A stretch of 8,252 nucleotides of DNA, taken from Ktedonobacter sp. 13_1_20CM_4_53_11 (GTDB lineage: Bacteria; Chloroflexota; Ktedonobacteria; Ktedonobacterales; Ktedonobacteraceae). Both the position numbers and the translations under genes were made by a program. How positions within the stretch are numbered: position 1 is the first letter of the stretch; the number at the start of each line of letters is the position of its first letter. Positions 1-8,252 of the stretch are shown here, in pieces. Under the pieces are notes generated by a model that did no database searches, had not been told where the DNA came from, and saw only the letters and a list, made by a program, of their open reading frames with translations. Location of the stretch: positions 1-8,252 of the forward strand of contig MNIY01000179.1 in assembly GCA_001919995.1 (NCBI GenBank), given 5' to 3'.

Positions 1-593
1 ATCGAGTTCACGTGTATGTTGATGGTTTTGGGGCTAATCCTGAGGTGTGCTGCAATCTGCTTGTTGGTCAGTCCAGTTGCCAGCAGGCGCAACACTTCAA
101 CCTCACGAGCGGTCAGCCCTCCAAAGGAGGGTGATGGGGACTCTGTTGAGACAGTCAAGGGAGAAACAGCGTTGACCCGCTCGCTGCTGGCAATCTGCCC
201 TTCTGCTGCCAGCGCCTCCTCAGGGGTCATGGCTTGCCCTTTTGCCCACAGCGCGGCAGAGGTCTCTTCACCAAGTTGGGTGCGTGCTTCTGCCAGGGTG
301 TGCTCGTAAAATGGTTGCTCAATCCCGACGGGATTACGAAACGCACCGAAAACACGCGAGGTCTCTGCCGCCGCAAAAAGTCGAACGGTCCACGCGGCTT
401 GTCCCTGGCTTAACGCGATTTCCCCCAGCCCCTCCAGGCAGGAGGCCAGTACCCATGCTATCCTTAAGGGTAACTTTGTGGCTCTCCCCGGTTCCATCAG
501 CGCGGTCAGACCTTCCTCATACAGCGCACGTGCCTGTATCAAGTTGCCCTGACGCAAGGCCAGAAGACCCAGAGCACAGAGCGTGCGCGCCAT
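1..593 (-). CDS. C-terminal TPR/LuxR-HTH part of STAND regulator (partial, after stop)
   Basis: This frame continues the 597-2606 reading frame beyond its TAA and stays open to the window edge (about 197 codons from the ATG at 593). It begins with TPR-like helices (ARTLCALGLLALRQGN, then ARALYEEGLTAL). Next comes an AAETSRVFGA-type segment usual near the end of such regulators, then a linker rich in Ser, Thr and Pro. It ends in a LuxR/GerE helix-turn-helix: LTAREVEVLRLLATGLTNKQ followed by IAAHLRISPKTINIHV, cut by the edge. The HTH would bind DNA. The ATG at 593-591 follows the stop by three bases, and GGGGAG lies about 12 nt upstream, so translation could restart here. More likely this is the severed end of one 870-plus-residue regulator. 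Identification of the HTH is secure; independent expression is not. Confidence 0.8.
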   Translation of the reverse strand, partial: MARTLCALGLLALRQGNLIQARALYEEGLTALMEPGRATKLPLRIAWVLASCLEGLGEIALSQGQAAWTVRLFAAAETSRVFGAFRNPVGIEQPFYEHTLAEARTQLGEETSAALWAKGQAMTPEEALAAEGQIASSERVNAVSPLTVSTESPSPSFGGLTAREVEVLRLLATGLTNKQIAAHLRISPKTINIHVNS

Positions 594-596
594 ATC

Positions 597-2606
597 TTAC
601 CGGCTCTCCCCTTGTTTCCCGAGCGTGAGCGCCTCTTCGAGGAAGGAAGCAGCCGTCGTTTCCTCCCCAAGGGCGGCCACTTCACACGCCAGGATGGTAA
701 GGACTTGCGCAGTGAATCCCGGGTTGCCCAGCCTTCTGAAGAGCGCGACGCTCTCCTCCGAAAGACGGCGCGCGGCCGCATACGCTCCCTGACAGTAGGA
801 TGCCCACCCGAGCGTGTGAAGAACGAGGGCGATATTCCACGGATCGCCCGACTCCCTAAAGAGTATCAGACTCTCCCCACACAGCTCATGTACGCCGGCA
901 AAATCCCCCCGGAAATGCGCCTGTATTCCCAGGGTCATCAGGACAGTAGCGATGCCCTTCCTATCCCCAACCTCTCTATACAACTGCAAGCTCTCTTCAA
1001 ACAAAGCATTGCCTGCAGCGTAATTGCCCCTATGAGTATCCTCGATCGTGCCCAGGAGGTTGAGTGCGTAAGCCATGGCTTGTTTGGCTCCCGACTTTCG
1101 AGAGAGTTCCAGGCTCTCTTCTAACAGCACCGTGGCTCGTTTTACGTCAAGTTGCCAGAGCGCCAGCCATCCCGCAACGTTCAGCACCTTCGCCATCACC
1201 TGGGGTGACACAGATGTGCCGCCTTCGCCACTTGGAGCCATTGCGTGCTCCAGGAAGCTGCGGCCCTCACTCACAAACCCGCGCAGAAACCAGAACCACC
1301 CGAGCGCTCCTGCTAGCCGCAAGACTGCTTCCGTCTCATTGCACTCTACCAGCCAATGCAGCGCAGCCCATAGATTGTCACGTTCCCGTTCCAACCGCTC
1401 CAACCATCTTATTTGCTTCATATCGAGCAATGCCGGCTCGGCTTGCTCAGCCAGCGCGAGGTAATACGTGGCATGGGCATGCCTGGTAATCTCTAACTCG
1501 CCGTACGCTTCCAGGCGCTCCAGGCCATACTCGCGGATCGTCTCCAGCATCTGGAAATGCCACACATCGCTCTCCTGCTTCGCTGGTTGGAGCAGGCTTT
1601 TATCTAAGAGGGATGCGACCACATGCATGACAGGCATGGTCACATCACCTGGAGCCGTGCAAACGACCTCCGCTGCTTCCAGCGTGCAGCCACCGGCAAA
1701 AACGGAAAGTCGCCGGAAGACTCGCTGCTCCTCAGTCGAGAGCAACTCATAGCTCCAAGAGATCGTGTTCCGCAGCGTCTGCTGGCGATCTGGCGCATCT
1801 GGTCCCCCGCGCGTCAACACTTCAAGCGGCTTCTCAAGGCGGGAGAGCAACTCACGAGGCGGGAGCAGTTTACTGTAAGCCGCCGCCAGTTCAATCGCCA
1901 GCGGTAAGCCATCCAGCCGGACGCAGATTGCTGCGATGATACCCGCGTTCTCTTCGGTCACCTGAAAATCGGGCTGAATCGCCTGTGCACGCCGCTTGAA
2001 GAGCATGATTGCCCCGAACTGCTCAATGGTTTCATATGTTGGAAGATGGTGCAGGTCGGGTACGGGTAGTGGAGGGACCAGAAACTCGTACTCGCCCTGC
2101 ACACGCAAGACGGCGCGGCTGGTCAGCAGGATCTTGAGTGTAGGACAGGCCGAGAGCAGTTCCGGGAGCAGCGCTGCCGCTGCCAATACCTGCTCGAAGT
2201 TGTCTAGCAGTAACAGGAGATGCTTATCGCGCAGGAAGCTTTGCAGGTGCTCAAATTGCAGTCGCTTCCTGGTCTCGCTGAGTCCGAGCGATTGCGCAAT
2301 GGTAAGCACGGCTTGTTGAGGAGTATCGATGTGAGCAAGTGGAACGAAGCAATATCCATCGGGAAATGTATGCTGCACGTCTAGCGCGACCTGTAAAGCC
2401 AGGCGAGTCTTTCCAATCCCCCCTGGGCCAGTCACGGTCAAGAGGCGCACATCAGGGTTCATCAGCAGTGTACATACCTGCTGTACCTCGTGTTCGCGTC
2501 CGATGAGTGTGGTGAAAGGTAGTGGCACCTGGTGGATTTGACGATGTGAGGAGCCAGCTGAACGTCTAGTTTCAAATGTTTGTTTGGAGGAGTGTTTACT
2601 GGACAT
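597..2606 (-). CDS. STAND (NB-ARC/AAA-like) ATPase with TPR region, N-terminal part of LuxR-family regulator, cut by a stop
   Basis: Predicted 669-residue signal-transduction NTPase of the MalT/AfsR-like STAND class; these usually bind ATP and an inducer, oligomerise and regulate transcription through a C-terminal HTH. Residues 1-30 are a polar leader, then FTTLIGREHEV opens the NTPase. Walker A GPGGIGKT is at 60-67, Walker B LLLLLDNFEQV at about 130-140, a sensor LTSR at 161-164 and the GLPLA motif at about 233-237. From about residue 430 onward TPR-like helical pairs recur (for example LNVAGWLALWQLDVKRATVL). The start at 2606 has AGGA five bases upstream and the family's normal lead-in; the longer frame to 2750 has no such support. 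The frame ends at TAA 597-599, yet TPR and HTH coding continues in the same frame to the left edge. This is a nonsense mutation, a sequencing error or a natural split. Confidence 0.85.
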   Translation of the reverse strand: MSSKHSSKQTFETRRSAGSSHRQIHQVPLPFTTLIGREHEVQQVCTLLMNPDVRLLTVTGPGGIGKTRLALQVALDVQHTFPDGYCFVPLAHIDTPQQAVLTIAQSLGLSETRKRLQFEHLQSFLRDKHLLLLLDNFEQVLAAAALLPELLSACPTLKILLTSRAVLRVQGEYEFLVPPLPVPDLHHLPTYETIEQFGAIMLFKRRAQAIQPDFQVTEENAGIIAAICVRLDGLPLAIELAAAYSKLLPPRELLSRLEKPLEVLTRGGPDAPDRQQTLRNTISWSYELLSTEEQRVFRRLSVFAGGCTLEAAEVVCTAPGDVTMPVMHVVASLLDKSLLQPAKQESDVWHFQMLETIREYGLERLEAYGELEITRHAHATYYLALAEQAEPALLDMKQIRWLERLERERDNLWAALHWLVECNETEAVLRLAGALGWFWFLRGFVSEGRSFLEHAMAPSGEGGTSVSPQVMAKVLNVAGWLALWQLDVKRATVLLEESLELSRKSGAKQAMAYALNLLGTIEDTHRGNYAAGNALFEESLQLYREVGDRKGIATVLMTLGIQAHFRGDFAGVHELCGESLILFRESGDPWNIALVLHTLGWASYCQGAYAAARRLSEESVALFRRLGNPGFTAQVLTILACEVAALGEETTAASFLEEALTLGKQGESR

Positions 2607-2940
2607 GTGAATCCTGTCTATCTCTATCTCTGTGCTCGTAGCTCTATCCTGCTCGCCACAACGAAAGTATGGAACGAGCGAAATTCGCAGAAACCTCGCG
2701 TCCTTGCACAAACGAGACATCCATGTCCTTCTCGCCCTGGCGCTGATCACAGCAAATCATCCAAGGCCCTTTTTCCTGGTTCCTGGCTTCTTATTCAATC
2801 AGGCATGTGCCTGAGGTAAATGATGATAGAGGACAAGCACGATTCATATCTTTTTAAGGCGATGAAAACTTCAAAAGCAACCCTAACAAGTCATTGTATA
2901 CGATAAATCACGAGAATACCAGGTAAAAGTGCCTGGATGC

Positions 2941-3087
2941 TCTAGACATTTGGAGAGAAGACTTCCCCTGAGTGGGCTTGAGAGGCGGCCTGCATGTCAT
3001 CCTGAGCGCAGCGAAGGATCTGTGCGTCCGTCGAGCTAGACCCTTCGCTGTGCTCAGGGTGACAAGCATGATCTCCAAATGTCTATA
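2941..3087. mobile_element. MITE-like palindromic element with terminal inverted repeats and 5-bp target duplication
   Basis: The ends are 16-bp terminal inverted repeats: TCTAGACATTTGGAGA at 2941-2956 and TCTCCAAATGTCTATA at 3072-3087 (15 of 16 pair). The sequence GATGC sits directly outside both ends (2936-2940 and 3088-3092), as expected for a 5-bp target-site duplication. Inside is a second large inverted repeat (2996-3020 with 3039-3063). No transposase is encoded, so it would be non-autonomous. It lies between the minus-strand promoter-like element (3117-3163) and the STAND regulator, that is, within that gene's presumed leader. Repeats and flanking duplication are seen directly; transposition is inferred. 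Confidence 0.7.
2996..3063. repeat. Internal inverted repeat of the CCTGAGC-GAAGG type
   Basis: Arms 2996-3020 and 3039-3063 pair at 22 of 25 positions around an 18-nt loop; the core is CCTGAGCRCAGCGAAGG. It could form a long hairpin in RNA of either strand. A related half-copy is at 8075-8100. Similar CCTGAGCG-AGCGAAGGATC palindromes are, from memory, common dispersed repeats in Chloroflexota and other bacteria. It lacks a U-tract, so terminator activity is only possible. Confidence 0.75.
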
Positions 3088-3116
3088 GATGCGCTATCAT
3101 GATTGGACACGTGTTG

Positions 3117-3163
3117 AGTATAGCGTATCACACGCAAAAGTACATCTTTAGAACGCGCTATTT
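3117..3163 (-). promoter_or_regulatory. Conserved promoter-like element, copy C (minus strand, toward the STAND regulator)
   Basis: Read on the minus strand, AAATAGCGCGTTC followed by TAAAGATGTACTTT (3163 to 3137) is followed by exactly 14 nt and then TATACT (3122-3117). This reproduces the plus-strand copies at 3325-3373 and 5789-5837 with the same box-to-TATACT spacing. A weak GAGTAACGATAA match to the upstream TGTAAAC box lies about 29 nt further upstream. No TTGACA-like -35 is present, so the conserved box may replace it or bind an activator. Transcription would run toward 2606 with a leader of about 500 nt that includes the MITE. Confidence 0.55.
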
Positions 3164-3277
3164 ATTAACTCATCGAGGCGCTTTTTAGCAGCTTATCGTT
3201 ACTCAACAATTGATATGGTGTCCGAAATTGCTTCAACGTGTTGAGGCTCCTTGTCGTCTTGATATGCAGCGCATCAT

Positions 3278-3373
3278 TAGTGTAAACAGATTACGTAGCT
3301 TATTCCTCTCGTCCCGGAATATATAAAAATAGCGTATTCTGAAGATGTGCTTTCGCCCTCAAGTCACTATACT
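3278..3373 (+). promoter_or_regulatory. Conserved promoter-like element, copy A (upstream of the 3570 gene)
   Basis: It has three parts: TAGTGTAAACAGATTAC at 3278-3294; the 31-bp box at 3325-3355 (AAAAATAGCGTATTCTGAAG, then ATGTGCTTTCG); and TATACT at 3368-3373. The box matches copy B (5789-5819) at 30 of 31 bases and the upstream part matches at 16 of 17. The distance from the shared CTTT to TATACT is 14 nt in all three copies. TATACT resembles a -10 hexamer, but there is no standard -35. The predicted leader to the ATG at 3570 is about 190 nt. The ATG at 3345, which could open a longer frame, lies inside the box and is therefore an unlikely start. Confidence 0.6.
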
Positions 3374-3569
3374 GGTAACAGTAGCTCACCTATGTGCGCG
3401 AGCAGTGACACAGGCAATTGTATCCACTGCTCTTGAGCAGATATCACGCGCCCTTTCTATTGTTTTAAGGAGCATTCATCAACGGTATGCCTTCCGGGGC
3501 TCAGGACGACGAAGAGCAATGGCGAGGAATGCGGTCTCGCCTATAGTCATGGCAGAAAGGGACCCATCT

Positions 3570-4070
3570 ATGCCTCGTTATACCGAAGAACAGCGGGCCA
3601 GGCTGATGGCACTACCAAGTGCCATGTTGACGGCTACGCTTGTGATGGGGGCCACTGATCCGGTGGCAACAGTGCGTGATGTGCTTGATGAGATGCGCTA
3701 TTTCCGAGAGATGAGAGAGGCCTATCCAGGCAATGACTTGATCCAGGGCATGTTGCAGGATGCTGAAAACCCTCTGCCGGGGCTCCATCTCTCATCCTCC
3801 TCCGATAGAGAAGCTGTTTTGCACGCATTACACCAATATATCGAGGAAGCAGGCGCACTGTTGGGTAATGACACCGAAGCCAAAGAGTTCAAGGCGTTTT
3901 TAGCCGCCCTGACAGAGATGGTTGCAGAAGACGTGGAAAAAGGCCAGTTTGGGAGCGACCCGGCAATCGAACAGGCACAAATGAAGTACCTGAGGACGTT
4001 GAAACAGCAATTCAGCCTGCTGCCACCCAGGCTGATGAATGGCACAGCATCCTCTGATGCAAGCTTGTGA
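3570..4070 (+). CDS. Uncharacterised acidic, mostly helical 166-aa protein
   Basis: I do not recognise this family with confidence. The protein starts MPRYTEEQRARLMALPSAML and has no signal peptide or membrane span. It looks mostly alpha-helical and acidic. A segment YPGNDLIQGMLQDAENPLPG (about residues 49-68) precedes a Ser-rich turn, and an acidic helix holding AALTEMVAEDVEKGQF (about 111-126) follows. The size and layout vaguely recall small cytosolic helical proteins of cyanobacteria and Chloroflexota that carry a conserved VAxxAKEGG-type helix, but this is from memory and weak. The start at 3570 has AGAAAGGGA about seven bases upstream; the upstream frame to 3345 overlaps promoter copy A. 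The kinase at 4202 follows after 131 bp on the same strand and may share its transcript. Confidence 0.65.
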   Translation: MPRYTEEQRARLMALPSAMLTATLVMGATDPVATVRDVLDEMRYFREMREAYPGNDLIQGMLQDAENPLPGLHLSSSSDREAVLHALHQYIEEAGALLGNDTEAKEFKAFLAALTEMVAEDVEKGQFGSDPAIEQAQMKYLRTLKQQFSLLPPRLMNGTASSDASL

Positions 4071-4201
4071 TCTCCTGCATGAAAAGCAGCCAGGGGAGGT
4101 ATGTCATCCTCAGGTTGAGAGAGGTCAGCACTCTTCAATCTGCTCACCTTTTCATATTTTTCACCAACTAGCATGACCTCAGTGAAAGGGGGAAAAGCAC
4201 A

Positions 4202-5062
4202 ATGGCACTCGAAACCATGAAAAATAACCGCTACCGCATGGTGCGCCCACTTGGCAGCGGCAGCACCGGCGAAGTTTACCTGGTCGAGGACACGTTAAGG
4301 AATCGACAGGAGGTGGTCCTCAAGCTTCTCCATGCCTATGCGCACCCCTTGACGCACGATGCGCAAAGTGCCTCGCGAGCCTTTCTATTTGAGGCGGGAG
4401 CCATTTCACAACTCACACACCCGAATATCTTACCCCTGCTCGATTATGGCACTGAGACAGTAGACGGGGAAGTCGTCCCTTTTATCGTGACTCCCTATTG
4501 CTCTGAAGGGTCACTGGCAACCTGGCTCGAGAAGCGGTCGAACGACGACGTGCTCACCCTGGAAGACGCGGCGCGTCTGGTGCGCCAGGTTGCCGCTGCC
4601 CTGCAATACGCCCATGACCAGGGCATCGTGCACCGCGATGTCAAATCTGCCAATGTCTTCATCCGCAGTACCTTGAATGGACCTCCAGCCATGCTGGTGG
4701 CCGACTTCAGTTTCGCGCAACCCATCCCTGAGGCGCGGGTCAGTGGCCTCGACATTCGCGGCACTCCCGAGTACATGGCGCCAGAGCAGTGGGAGGGACA
4801 GGTCGTCCCGGCAAGCGATCAATATGCCCTTGGGGTGCTGGTCTATCAATTGCTCACGGGTCGCCTCCCCTTTCAGGGCGGCATTGAGCAACTGAGGGAT
4901 GCACATCTCAAGAGCTGGCCAACCCCACCCAGCACCATCAACCCCACGCTTTCACCAGAGATCGACGCCGTCGTTGGACGGGCGCTGGCAAAAAAGCCGG
5001 GCGAGCGCTATCCTACCGTCACCGCCTTTGCCGATGCATTTACCCGGGCGATCCAGCCAGTG
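4202..5062 (+). CDS. Ser/Thr protein kinase catalytic domain (N-terminal part of a frameshifted membrane kinase)
   Basis: Bacterial Hanks-type kinase, phosphorylating Ser/Thr in the cytoplasm. Residues from the ATG at 4202: glycine loop GSGSTG 18-23, ATP-binding lysine in VVLKLL at 41, helix-C glutamate in LFEAG at 64, catalytic HRDVKSAN at 144-151, metal-binding DFS at 168-170, and GTPEYMAPEQW at 187-197. SDQYALGVLVYQLLTG and the KKPGERYPTV end motif follow. DFS replaces the usual DFG; the aspartate is kept, so activity is plausible. GGGGG about nine bases upstream supports the start; ATG 4217 is an alternative. The literal frame runs to 5257, but after about residue 283 its sequence is out of frame with the transmembrane segment that should follow. 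A shift of +1 (one extra base or two missing) is needed between about 5040 and 5065. Confidence 0.9.
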
Positions 5063-5684
5063 CCTGTACCTGTTGCCGCTGCTCGTAGTGCTGGGGGGTA
5101 TGGGTCTCATTGCAAATGCTTTCTCAAACAGGTCTGCGCAATCGAGCGCCAACGCCACGGCAACGGCCAACACCAATGTCACCGGCACGGCCAACGCTCA
5201 TGCCACGGGCACAGCTCAGTCCAACAGCAATGCCAATGGTACCGCCACGGCCAATAAGAACGCGACGGCGACAGCCAACACTCATGCCACGGGCACAGCT
5301 CAGGCGCATGGCAATGTCAACGCCACGGCCACAGCCAATGCCAGGGCGACGGCCAATGCTAACGCCACCGCTACCGTCCTGCCTGCTGCACAGTTGAGCG
5401 GGAACTGGGTCAATGCCGATCAGAACATCACCCAGGGTATCACGAAGATGGATATCACGAACAATGGCACCAATATCACCGTTCACCCGTTTTCCAAGTG
5501 TTCTCCGACCGACTGTGATTGGGGGACGAAAAGCAACAAGTATACAGGCTCTCCTTTCAATATCCTCTTTGTCGTCAATGGCAGTACGGAATCTCTTGCT
5601 ATTTCCCCGCAGGGAACACAACTCACGGTGGTTGACACGAGTTCGACCAATGGCACCCATACATATTTACTCGACAAAGGATAG
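5063..5684 (+). pseudogene. Transmembrane, stalk and sensor part of the kinase, in a different frame
   Basis: This is the natural continuation of the kinase but lies in the next frame. It begins with a membrane segment, LYLLPLLVVLGGMGLIANAF (5067-5126 region). Next comes about 75 residues of low-complexity Asn/Ala/Thr repeats (units such as ATATANTN and ANAHATGTAQ), then about 100 residues of a folded extracytoplasmic domain. That domain opens AQLSGNWVNADQNITQGITK and contains KCSPTDCDWG with two cysteines. Similar GxWVN...CxPTDCDWG domains are, from memory, found in secreted or sensor proteins of Chloroflexota and other phyla. No good start with a ribosome site exists here (the frame's ATG at 4899 is inside the kinase), so it needs the upstream frame. 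Joined, the protein would be about 494 residues. Break, sequencing error and recoding remain open. Confidence 0.75.
5140..5375 (+). repeat. Degenerate tandem repeats coding an Asn/Ala/Thr stalk
   Basis: Short units such as GCCACGGCCAAC recur through this interval and encode ANATAT-like peptides. Two longer copies, 5190-5219 and 5274-5303, match at 29 of 30 bases, 84 bp apart. The region gives a flexible Thr/Asn-rich linker between membrane and sensor domain. It is prone to slippage and length change. Many N-A-T, N-V-T and N-G-T triplets occur, which may be incidental to the repeat. Confidence 0.85.
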
Positions 5685-5727
5685 TAGGCATGATATGAGC
5701 CATGGTGATTATTCAGGAAGCAATGAC

Positions 5728-5837
5728 TAGTGTAAACACATTACCTGTCCCGGCTATCCCGTTTCCCTCACCTGCCTGTGGAGCGTCCAAAAATAGCGTG
5801 TTCTGAAGATGTGCTTTCGTCTCTATGGCACTATACT
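5728..5837 (+). promoter_or_regulatory. Conserved promoter-like element, copy B (upstream of the DUF6325 operon)
   Basis: TAGTGTAAACACATTAC at 5728-5744, the 31-bp AAAAATAGCG...GCTTTCG box at 5789-5819 and TATACT at 5832-5837 repeat copy A. The gap between the two upstream boxes is 44 nt here against 30 nt in copy A, while the box-to-TATACT spacing is identical. Similarity continues weakly past TATACT (CGAAGCAGCAG against GGTAACAGTAG). The predicted leader to the ATG at 6070 is about 225 nt. Outside this element I see no convincing gene between 5685 and 6069; a minus-strand frame there is discussed in the findings. Confidence 0.6.
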
Positions 5838-6069
5838 CGAAGCAGCAGTCAAGTTTATCCGGTGCGCCGCGACGGCAGCAGTTCGTTGTACATGAGCGCA
5901 AGTTGTACGGAACGGCCACCACAGTGTGCGGACATGGTGTTCGCATGCTGAGAGAGTTACCGCAAGCAATGTAGCGATGAACAAAGGAATAGCGAAGTGG
6001 ATCATACGTGGGTACGGCTCTGTAGAACCACGCATGACCTTCTTTCAAGAAAAGTAAAGGAGAAACGTT

Positions 6070-6534
6070 ATGACTCTCGGTCCCCTGGAATACGTCCTCA
6101 TCGGATTTGAGGGCAATCGATTCACGGGCCAGATTCTGCCGGAACTAGTCGCAGCGCGTGACAAAGGTATCATCCGGGTAATCGATCTGCTCTTGATTTT
6201 GAAAGATGAACAGGGCAACACTGCCGTGATGGAATTGAGCGACCTCAATAGCGAGGAGACGGAGCGGTTGGGCCCCATCGCCAGTGACCTACTTGAGGTG
6301 CTCGAGCAGGATGATGTCGAAGCGGTAGCGGGCTATCTCCCCAACAACAGTTCTGCTGCTCTCCTGCTGATCGAGCAAACCTGGGCCCTCGGCTTAAAGG
6401 AAGCGATCATGAACGCGGGCGGCATCCCTCTTGACGGAGGGCTGGTTGCACCGGCTGTAGTGCAGATGTTGGAGGCAGAACTGGCAGCGGAAGCTGCCAA
6501 GCAGAACCTGGTAGAAGTAAAAGCTGCCGAGTAA
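6070..6534 (+). CDS. DUF6325 family protein
   Basis: A 154-residue protein beginning MTLGPLEYVLIGFEGNRFTG, the characteristic opening of DUF6325 proteins. It continues with IIRVIDLLLILKDEQGNTAV, an acidic ELSDLNSEE stretch, SSAALLLIEQTWALGLKEAI and an Ala/Glu-rich tail. The length is normal for the family. The molecular function is unknown; members in Actinobacteria and Chloroflexota often stand next to a short SHOCT-domain protein, as here. No signal peptide is present; a soluble or membrane-peripheral location is likely. AAAGGAG seven bases upstream supports the start. It heads a row with only 13 bp before the next gene, so co-transcription is likely, probably from promoter copy B. Confidence 0.85.
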   Translation: MTLGPLEYVLIGFEGNRFTGQILPELVAARDKGIIRVIDLLLILKDEQGNTAVMELSDLNSEETERLGPIASDLLEVLEQDDVEAVAGYLPNNSSAALLLIEQTWALGLKEAIMNAGGIPLDGGLVAPAVVQMLEAELAAEAAKQNLVEVKAAE

Positions 6535-6547
6535 AAGGAGAACCACC

Positions 6548-6925
6548 ATGTTACGAAGACGAGTAGTTGGCCGGGCAGTTGTCCGAACAGCCGCGGTCGG
6601 CGGCGTTGCTTATGCAGCAGGCCATCACGTGGCCACGAAATCGGCACAGCAAACCCAGATGGATGCTCAGCAGAACGCACAGATTGACGATCTCCAGCAG
6701 CAGCAAGCCGCGGGGCAGGCGGCACCAGCGCAGCCCGTTTACCAGCAACCGCCACCTCCAATGTATCAACAGCCTGCGCCACAGGCGGCTGCACCAGCGC
6801 CATCTGGCGGGATGACGACTGAGAAAATGGAGCAGCTAAAGCAACTTGGGCAGTTGCATGAATCGGGTATCTTGACCGACGCCGAGTTTGATGCTGAGAA
6901 GCAAAAGATTTTGAACAGTTACTAG
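6548..6925 (+). CDS. SHOCT-domain protein
   Basis: A 125-residue protein in three parts. Residues 1-30 are basic (MLRRRVVGRAVVR), then small and hydrophobic (AAVGGVAYAAGHHVA), and may lie in or on the membrane. Residues 31-88 are a Gln/Pro/Ala-rich linker (QQQAAGQAAP, QQPPPPMYQQ). Residues 93-122 form a SHOCT domain (KMEQLKQLGQLHESGILTDA followed by EFDAEKQKIL). SHOCT is a short C-terminal module thought to mediate oligomerisation or partner binding. AAGGAG nine bases upstream supports the ATG. Pairing with DUF6325 is a recurring arrangement, suggesting a joint role, perhaps at the membrane; that role is not established. Confidence 0.88.
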   Translation: MLRRRVVGRAVVRTAAVGGVAYAAGHHVATKSAQQTQMDAQQNAQIDDLQQQQAAGQAAPAQPVYQQPPPPMYQQPAPQAAAPAPSGGMTTEKMEQLKQLGQLHESGILTDAEFDAEKQKILNSY

Positions 6926-8035: not shown

Positions 8036-8144
8036 TTGCGCAACTCACATGGAGCTAGCTCTGGTTTCAAACATGTCATCCTGAGCGAGAGCGAAGGATC
8101 TAGCCCAAGTTGCGCAACTCACATGGAGCTAGCTCTGGTTTCAA
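8036..8144. repeat. Perfect 35-bp direct repeat pair around a 39-bp spacer
   Basis: Bases 8036-8070 and 8110-8144 are identical over 35 bp (beginning TTGCGCAACTCACATGG and ending GCTCTGGTTTCAA). Each contains the palindrome GAGCTAGCTC. The 39-bp spacer holds a CCTGAGCGAGAGCGAAGG unit related to the inverted repeat at 2996-3063. The second copy ends six bases before the stop codon of the minus-strand regulator. Flanks outside the pair do not match. Confidence 0.9.
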
Positions 8145-8150
8145 GCGCAT

Positions 8151-8252
8151 TTAGACAGCGCTGGGCACCTGCGCAACAATGCCAAGGCGCATCGCCACGA
8201 GGATAGCCTGGGTGCGGCGCTGCACACCAAGCTTGGCTATAATGCGACGGAC
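8151..8252 (-). CDS. LuxR/NarL-type regulator, C-terminal end only (partial)
   Basis: Only the last 33 codons are inside the window; the gene continues past the right edge. They read VRRIIAKLGVQRRTQAILVA, then MRLGIVAQVPSAV, and stop at TAA (8153-8151). This is the second half of a LuxR/NarL helix-turn-helix: the recognition-helix end (VRRIIAKLGV), the RRTQA turn and the final dimerisation helix. The rest of the protein, perhaps a receiver domain as in NarL/FixJ proteins or a STAND ATPase, cannot be seen. It is distinct from the HTH protein at the left edge, and on the same strand. Confidence 0.85.
   Translation of the reverse strand, partial: VRRIIAKLGVQRRTQAILVAMRLGIVAQVPSAV

What the first reader, a model, noticed from the sequence alone, without database searches (positions are those of the whole stretch)
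3117..5837. Three copies of one promoter-like module with fixed spacing define a possible local regulon
A box AAATAGCG-NRTTCT-RAAGATGTRCTTT, exactly 14 nt, then TATACT occurs at 3325-3373 (+), 5789-5837 (+) and 3163-3117 (-). Copies A and B match at 30 of 31 bases in the box, and both also have TAGTGTAAACANATTAC upstream (3278-3294, 5728-5744). Each copy faces a gene: the unknown protein/kinase, the DUF6325-SHOCT-LURP operon, and the STAND regulator. No usual -35 is visible, so the box may serve an alternative sigma factor or an activator, possibly the STAND-LuxR protein itself.
Basis: partly seen in the sequence, partly recalled or inferred. Interest (0 to 1): 0.75.

Follow-up and report, generated by a model that had tools for sequence, protein, structure and literature searches.

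The report
Shared promoter switch of gene islands
A long, strictly spaced promoter sequence seen three times in this stretch recurs about fifty times in it and three related bacterial genomes, mostly between genes and partly in dense blocks, which points to one dedicated genetic switch whose best candidate controller is a MalT-like sensor protein.

Summary
In detail: three copies of AAATAGCGNRTTCTRAAGATGTRCTTT-N14-TATACT lie where stated, and the core is not expected by chance. It is more than local. Of 47 held genomes of one class (probably Ktedonobacteria) three carry the module: 18, 15 and 3 whole-genome matches, reversed pattern 0. A profile finds 51 sites in these and the window. Of 41 hits chosen by the box alone, 34 have TANNNT at the same distance. 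46 of 48 sites lie outside long ORFs. In one genome 14 of 15 matches fall into two blocks of about 10 and 12 kb. A palindrome, TAGTGYN4RCACTA, centred near -107, accompanies the box in three lineages, not in the fourth. Best reading: activator-dependent promoters of a clustered regulon. The window's own STAND-LuxR does not follow the box across genomes; a different, MalT-like STAND-LuxR does (1007-1143 bits in both other box genomes, at most 466 in 44 without). The nearest published system is the MalT-controlled region of Actinoplanes. Regulator, start sites and direction of control are untested; the window's genome is not held.

The parts
3325..3353 (+). copy A, 29-bp box (predicted -55 to -27)
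   Evidence: read directly; 63.7-bit profile site
3368..3373 (+). copy A, -10 element TATACT; predicted +1 at 3380
   Evidence: TANNNT at this offset in 34 of 41 box-only hits
3278..3293 (.). palindrome-type element TAGTGTAAACAGATTA, centre -94.5 of copy A
   Evidence: 2 mismatches to TAGTGYN4RCACTA
5789..5817 (+). copy B, 29-bp box
   Evidence: 67.2 bits
5832..5837 (+). copy B, -10 element TATACT; predicted +1 at 5844
5728..5743 (.). palindrome-type element TAGTGTAAACACATTA, centre -108.5 of copy B
   Evidence: 1 mismatch to TAGTGYN4RCACTA
3137..3165 (-). copy C, 29-bp box (reads 3165 to 3137)
   Evidence: 44.6 bits
3117..3122 (-). copy C, -10 element TATACT; predicted +1 at 3110
   Evidence: no palindrome at the usual distance, the nearest at -175 is shared with copy A
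3549..4070 (+). unknown protein (173 aa from this start), first gene after copy A; a relative in G213 also has box and -10 upstream
   Evidence: L069:9787-10125, 85% over 73 aa, box at 10143
4202..5257 (+). Ser/Thr protein kinase, second gene after copy A
   Evidence: PF00069 1.5e-36
6070..6534 (+). DUF6325 protein, first gene after copy B; a relative (58%) in G117 also has the box directly upstream
   Evidence: PF19850; G117:C29 box 10209, gene 10296
6548..6925 (+). SHOCT protein
   Evidence: PF09851
6972..7505 (+). LURP-one-related (LOR) protein
   Evidence: PF04525; relatives behind or near boxes in G117 and G213
597..2750 (-). STAND regulator, NB-ARC and TPR part, facing copy C; listed frame from GTG 2750, start may be 2720 or 2606
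   Evidence: PF00931, TPR_12
3..593 (-). C-terminal LuxR (GerE) part in the same frame, separated by a TAA at 597-599; runs off the window
   Evidence: PF00196 1.4e-14

Best explanation
The module is an activator-dependent promoter that defines one regulon. SHOWN by sequence: a 29-bp box AAAAATAGYGYGTTCTRARGATGTRYTTT, a fixed 14-nt gap, TAYACT, and weakly conserved CAG with its A seven bases further on, at about fifty places, mostly between genes. INFERRED: that A is +1, TAYACT is a sigma-70-type -10, the box covers about -55 to -27, i.e. the place of a class II activator site overlapping a missing -35. The box holds a half-operator (TAGYGYGTT) like half of the palindrome that lies upstream, centred in 20 of 31 cases at -105 to -110 and in 9 others about 10 or 20 bp nearer, as if a regulator had to sit on one face of the helix. 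INFERRED, less sure: the activator is a MalT-like STAND-LuxR protein, which on a signal would oligomerise through its ATPase domain, occupy these sites and recruit RNA polymerase; its gene lies downstream of a box, behind other genes, in two of the three relatives, so it may feed back on itself. Genes behind the boxes are membrane, lipid, glycogen, redox and signalling genes, ECF sigma factors and kinases, which looks like a stress or survival programme.
For: Recurrence with 0 matches of the reversed pattern (with one stray, 51). 51 profile sites above 25 bits; best control score 1.4. -10 at fixed distance in 34 of 41 box-only hits; 26 of 33 without the eight copies first found with the help of the -10. 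Placement outside long ORFs. Conserved gene links: unknown protein (window, G213), DUF6325 (window, G117). Palindrome starting 26-80 nt upstream of the box in 24 of 26 G213, 4 of 5 G252 and 2 of 3 window sites against 1.3% of random stretches. Box positions 3-11 match its half-site (permuted-column p 0.005). MalT-like STAND of G213: 1143 bits in G252, 1020 and 1007 in G117, at most 466 in the other 44 genomes; domains NACHT/AAA, TPR_MalT, GerE; boxes upstream in G213:C23 and G117:C6. RGATGT of the box, at -37 to -32 on the inferred +1, sits near where MalT boxes (core GGA(T/G)GA) are reported (PMC7567727).
Against: The MalT-box likeness alone is not significant (p 0.09-0.13). G117 has 17 boxes but the palindrome at only 1, so the palindrome is not needed everywhere or serves another protein. 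The G252 copy of the MalT-like gene has no box on its 6.5-kb contig, nor has the second G117 copy in the 20 kb read around it. The co-occurrence rests on two genomes besides the query's own, may reflect shared gene blocks or kinship, and the search scored at most 16 candidates per genome. No transcript, binding or mutant data; the regulator has not been seen in the window's own genome, which is not held.
Confidence: 0.5

Rival explanations
1. Alternative-sigma promoter: an ECF-type sigma factor reads the GATGTR part of the box and TAYACT and activates its own gene and the rest; the upstream half of the box and the palindrome bind a helper.
For: ECF sigma genes carry the box in G213 (L105:9498-10178, box 9416) and twice in G117, at the ends of both box-rich contigs. 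Self-activation is typical of ECF sigma factors (recalled). The conserved C in TAYACT is unusual for a sigma-70 -10 (recalled).
Against: G213's ECF protein has no close relative in G252 (best 1.4e-19), while relatives of about 50% identity are in genomes without boxes; eleven such ECF loci (one of them another G117 gene) lack the -35/-10 part (best 2.1 bits against 30). The consensus shows neither GGAAC nor CGTC (the usual ECF elements, recalled). A sigma factor alone does not explain conservation out to -55.
Confidence: 0.2
2. Another activator, not the MalT-like one, binds box and palindrome: for example the NB-ARC STAND-LuxR of the window, the NarL-type response regulator near the unknown protein, or an unseen GntR-like protein.
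For: An NB-ARC STAND-LuxR lies beside boxes in the window and in G117 (L071:3567-6494, with a kinase domain); a response regulator lies near the box gene in G213 (L069) and a similar tail ends the window.
Against: Neither tested family is tied to box-bearing genomes: window STAND 590 bits in G252 against 584 in box-free G165; response regulator closer in box-free G353 (68%) than in G117 (52%) or G252.
Confidence: 0.2
3. Repression: a dimer binds the palindrome and the half-operator, loops the DNA and blocks polymerase at the -35 region.
For: Two related sites about six helical turns apart in most promoters with a palindrome; palindromes shared by divergent promoters (L067, L069, L105).
Against: No consensus -35 that would make the promoters strong without help (window); the box is conserved far beyond the half-operator; 16 of 17 G117 sites lack the palindrome.
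Confidence: 0.07
4. The copies are traces of a mobile or repeated DNA element, or chance.
For: Clustering in blocks; divergent pairs; genes shared by blocks in different order (window against G117).
Against: Spacers and flanks differ while box and -10 stay; placement relative to genes; reversed pattern once in 400 genomes and 0 times; no exact match in viral contigs.
Confidence: 0.03

Closest known systems
MalT-activated 'maltose-regulated large genomic region' of Actinoplanes sp. SE50/110 (PMC7567727; abstract, sections 13 and 15 and passages read; its supplement not read)
   Same: A block of tens of mostly unannotated genes, in different order between species, with a conserved motif over the -35 region of 17 starts and a MalT-like LuxR regulator encoded inside; no maltose genes in it.
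   Different: The motif there is TCATCC-N5-GGATGA; here the box is 29 bp, only the GGATG part is alike, and a separate upstream palindrome exists in three of four lineages. The genes named in its text (arginine, amino acid metabolism) are not among the families met here, but no full comparison was made. Phylum differs; deletion and transcriptome evidence exists there, none here.
MalT-dependent mal promoters of E. coli (MalT box GGGGA(T/G)GAGG as cited in PMC7567727; MalT activation in PMC10427625, passages only)
   Same: STAND-LuxR regulator with MalT-like TPR domain; site overlapping a missing -35; RGATGT near the reported position.
   Different: Last base of the core hexamer differs; no repeated sites within the box; no maltose genes recognised among the targets.
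Autoregulated ECF sigma factor regulons (recalled)
   Same: ECF sigma genes are themselves box targets in two genomes.
   Different: Element lengths and sequences do not fit, and the ECF protein does not follow the box across genomes.
GntR/YtrA-type operators (PMC6746942, passages only)
   Same: Palindrome with separated half-sites plus extra half-sites nearby.
   Different: YtrA sites are described there as typically 24 bp with distant half-sites, and the studied protein is a repressor; no such gene was looked for here.

Membership tests
MalT-type (STAND-LuxR) activated regulon | MalT-like regulator (ATPase/NOD, MalT-like TPR, C-terminal LuxR domain) present wherever the sites are | tested here: met
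   Query from G213; both other held box genomes have relatives at 1007 bits or more, none of 44 others above 466, at most 16 candidates scored per genome. Domains; the G252 copy is cut by the contig end before any LuxR part. Not testable for the window's own genome.
MalT-type (STAND-LuxR) activated regulon | core hexamer GGA(T/G)GA overlapping the -35 region | tested here: inconclusive
   RGATGT at -37 to -32, 5 of 6 bases; p 0.09-0.13 with permuted columns; +1 is inferred
MalT-type (STAND-LuxR) activated regulon | several repeated sites per promoter | tested here: not met
   no significant direct or inverted repeat inside the box (p 0.25 and 0.22); instead a half-site shared with an upstream palindrome. 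Not filed as a member on this ground.
MalT-type (STAND-LuxR) activated regulon | regulator binds the site and raises transcription | not testable with these tools
   needs bench work
ECF sigma regulon | sigma gene carries the promoter itself | tested here: met
   G213 L105, G117 C6 and C29
ECF sigma regulon | sigma factor follows the promoter across genomes | tested here: not met
   G252 best 1.4e-19; box-free genomes up to 50% identity
ECF sigma regulon | short -35 (GGAAC) and -10 (CGTC) elements (recalled) | tested here: not met
   column frequencies
sigma-70-type promoter | -10 hexamer TANNNT at a fixed place | tested here: met
   34 of 41 box-only hits
sigma-70-type promoter | recognisable -35 TTGACA | tested here: not met
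   none of the window's 4 matches is at a box; consensus GATGTR there

The most novel reading that the evidence does not exclude
A dedicated, previously undescribed promoter class in a little-studied lineage: a STAND-type signalling ATPase commands, through a 29-bp compound -35 element plus a phased upstream operator, whole islands in which gene after gene carries its own copy of the promoter, including ECF sigma factors, kinases and the regulator's own gene cluster, so that one signal throws a self-amplifying survival programme that can pass between species as a block.
Probability: 0.25. Interest if true: 0.75.

Novelty: new variant of a known kind. Interest (0 to 1): 0.6.

Why it matters
It gives a little-studied bacterial group a concrete regulon with a predicted promoter, a predicted controller and about fifty predicted sites, many before proteins of unknown function (DUF6325, DUF1269, LURP-one, SHOCT, DUF2252, and 13 of 46 submitted proteins without any Pfam family). 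It would also be a second case, beside Actinoplanes, of a MalT-like STAND protein that commands a gene block apparently unrelated to maltose, which makes the question of what such STAND-LuxR proteins sense directly testable.

Tried and rejected
Whole-genome search of the window's own genome: none held. Genome contigs with the DUF6325 alignment found only two distant loci of one Anaerolineae bin, used as a bridge to the phylum. A loose 17-mer scan with 3 mismatches in seven genomes was uninformative: matches exceeded the reversed control in box-free genomes too (G353 123 against 55). Viral contigs, exact pattern: 0. ECF sigma, response regulator and window STAND as box-tied regulators: rejected by distribution. 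Internal symmetry of the box: none significant. A G117-specific upstream motif: none listed. Rfam: no family at gathering threshold in the window. PADLOC: the kinase matches many kinase models (PD-T4-6, mad6 and others), read as kinase-domain similarity, not as a defence system. A phasing test of the palindrome was significant for every period tried, 9.5 to 12, so it shows clustering, not a particular period; the three clusters are only a hint. GntR/YtrA as palindrome binder: only read about, not tested.

Rows dropped before counts: three profile sites below 21 bits, namely L108 (20.0, inside a 355-aa ORF, no -10; with it the placement count would be 46 of 49), L109 (16.8, inside a 143-aa ORF, no -10) and L110 + 14263 (13.2, a box with TACACT one base further away). 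One search also leaves out loci fetched later (L130-L135). The contigs scanned by profile were chosen because they held matches; unbiased counts are. The 23-base pattern behind the 41 box-only hits was drawn from the window and from copies found with the -10 included; eight of the 41 are such copies and all eight have TANNNT.
Full report
1. What is in the window. The core with up to three mismatches occurs three times, 0.06 expected. Genes: a STAND-LuxR regulator on the minus strand, an unknown protein, a Ser/Thr kinase, and DUF6325, SHOCT and LURP-one-related proteins. Relatives that carry an organism name come from a Chloroflexi bin (DUF6325 protein, 90%) and a Ktedonobacteraceae bin (unknown protein, 78%), so the window is probably from Ktedonobacteria; its genome is not held.

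2. Recurrence elsewhere. From a distant Anaerolineae locus I reached the phylum (400 genomes drawn evenly; 22 with a relative of the DUF6325 protein) and one class (47 genomes). The core with N14 and TATACT, up to three mismatches, hit 3 of 47 genomes: G213 four times, G117 once (about 40 nt upstream of its DUF6325 gene) and G353 once; G353 had no match with the longer box, so that one is probably chance. The 23-base box with up to three mismatches gave 16 matches in G213, 9 in G117 and 5 in G252, reversed pattern 0, 0 and 1; seven other genomes had 1 to 3, the level of the controls. With two mismatches only G213 (14), G117 (5) and G252 (3) of 400 genomes of the phylum matched; the reversed pattern matched once in all. 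A degenerate box plus N18 plus TANACT gave 18, 15 and 3 in these three genomes, controls 0.

3. Profile. A profile on 16 loci (167 kb, chosen because they held matches, window included) separated 51 sites above 13 bits from the next at 3.6; reversed or complemented DNA reached 1.4. After six further stretches were added and the three lowest sites left out, 51 sites exceed 25 bits: 26 in G213, 17 in G117, 5 in G252, 3 in the window. Consensus: AAAAATAGYGYGTTCTRARGATGTRYTTT, 14 nt, TAYACT. Since the profile includes the -10, the fairer test is on hits chosen by the 23-base box alone: 34 of 41 have TANNNT at exactly this offset, and no other offset from 27 to 59 reached four; without the eight copies first found with the -10 it is 26 of 33. 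Weak conservation of CAG, its A seven bases after the hexamer, suggests the start; on that assumption the box covers about -55 to -27, centred near -41.

4. Placement. 46 of 48 sites lie outside ORFs of 150 aa or more, which cover 75% of the bases; the two exceptions lie in one 250-codon frame of L071. 39 of 51 have an ORF start with a ribosome-binding-like sequence within 420 nt downstream, against 43% of 1000 random places. In G117, 14 of 15 whole-genome matches lie in C29:274-10255 and C6:418-12874, and both contigs begin inside ECF sigma genes identical over the first 141 bases, each with its own box. G213 is too fragmented to judge clustering.

5. Targets. Pfam names genes behind or near boxes: radical SAM/SPASM/SEC-C protein (G213, G252, 80% identical), AI-2E transporter (G213, G252), pyridoxal-dependent decarboxylase followed by DUF2252 and an ion channel, MGH1-like glycosidase, pentapeptide repeat, NDH2-like and other FAD reductases, short-chain dehydrogenase, DUF3267, phosphodiesterase, phospholipase D-like, BrkB, LURP-one, DUF1269, SCP2 and glycogen debranching enzyme, kinases, ECF sigma factors, STAND-LuxR proteins; the pentapeptide, DUF3267 and phosphodiesterase genes are several hundred bases from their box. 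13 of 46 submitted proteins had no family. Calling this a stress or survival set is my inference from such families; there are no expression data.

6. Second element. Of 47 sites above 30 bits, 35 have within 150 nt upstream a match with up to three mismatches to TAGTGYN4RCACTA; the whole 167 kb holds 153 such matches, i.e. about 0.14 per 150 nt. With up to two mismatches, starting 26 to 80 nt upstream of the box: 24 of 26 in G213, 4 of 5 in G252, 2 of 3 in the window, 1 of 17 in G117, against 1.3% of random stretches. Centres: 20 of 31 at -105 to -110, 5 at -94 to -102, 4 at -86 to -90, 2 elsewhere. TAGTGYAAAYRCACTA with at most one mismatch occurs 13 times in G213, 4 times each in G252, G117 and G245, and 0 to 2 times in the others of 47; by position 11 of the 13 in G213 and all 4 in G252 lie within 100 nt of a profile site. 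Box positions 3-11 match its half-site (p 0.005), while the box has no significant symmetry of its own. G117 shows no substitute motif.

7. Which regulator? Four candidates were followed across the 47 genomes; all four families are found in all 47, so the scores matter. G213's ECF sigma factor: best elsewhere 205.5 bits in box-free G237, G117 202, G252 only 1.4e-19. G213's response regulator: 299 bits in box-free G353, G117 216. The window STAND: G252 590, box-free G165 584, G117 553, G213 540, then a gentle slope. The MalT-like STAND of G213:C23: G252 1143, G117 1020 and 1007, all other genomes at most 466 (at most 16 candidates scored per genome). Only the last has a gap that coincides with the box. 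Its gene lies downstream of a box in G213 (L130, box at 5540, a 141-aa frame between, a LURP-one gene after it) and in G117 (L110:6243-9341, box at 5014, short genes between); in G252 it lies beside a relative of the window's STAND (63% over 323 aa) without a box on that contig. The segment TxGTVKxHT of the LuxR domain is shared by the G213 and G117 proteins. The second G117 gene, C6:48176, has no box in the 20 kb read around it.

8. Literature. In Actinoplanes a MalT-like LuxR protein activates a region of 51 genes through a motif over the -35 region of 17 starts, none of them maltose genes; the gene order is shuffled between species (PMC7567727). That paper gives the MalT box as GGGGA(T/G)GAGG near -35. 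RGATGT in our box lies at -37 to -32, but the likeness alone is not significant. Searches for Ktedonobacter with promoter and regulon (2 papers, listing only, titles on other matters), with ECF sigma (0), Ktedonobacteria with transcription start and promoter (0), Ktedonobacter with LuxR and STAND (0), DUF6325 (0) and four motif strings (1, unrelated by its title) found no description; the library lacks most subscription journals.

9. Verdict. The feature is real and is a promoter module of a multi-gene regulon (near certain). That it is activator-driven is likely; that the MalT-like STAND protein drives it is the best current guess (about even). The system works like the Actinoplanes region but is not filed as a member, because repeated MalT sites were not found and binding was not tested.

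Noticed in passing
window 597-599 (-): An in-frame TAA separates the STAND regulator's NB-ARC/TPR part (597-2750) from its LuxR part (3-593); a recent nonsense change, a sequencing error or a real split.
   Followed up: partly
window 2940-3088 and 8072-8102: Inverted-repeat element (outer arms 17 nt, inner arms 31 nt) between copy C and the STAND gene, with a partial copy at the right end; looks like a small repeated extragenic element.
   Followed up: no
window 8036-8070 and 8110-8144: Perfect 35-bp direct repeat flanking the partial repeat copy.
   Followed up: no
window 4202-5257 and 4899-5684: The kinase frame and a second frame with a membrane-like stretch and Asn/Ala/Thr-rich repeats overlap; the coding frame may change there.
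   Followed up: no
window 8151-8252 (-): Tail of a LuxR-type response regulator, similar to the one next to the unknown protein's relative in G213 (L069:8999-9643).
   Followed up: partly
G117:C6:1-470 and G117:C29:1-330: Two contigs end in ECF sigma genes identical over the first 141 bases, each with its own box, suggesting a duplicated sigma gene that broke the assembly.
   Followed up: partly
L071:3567-6494: One protein with kinase, NB-ARC and LuxR domains, i.e. a fusion of gene types that lie near each other in the window.
   Followed up: no
L140:4133 (G165): An 18-bit, diverged box with TACACT at the right distance near a STAND gene of a genome otherwise without boxes; may be chance.
   Followed up: no
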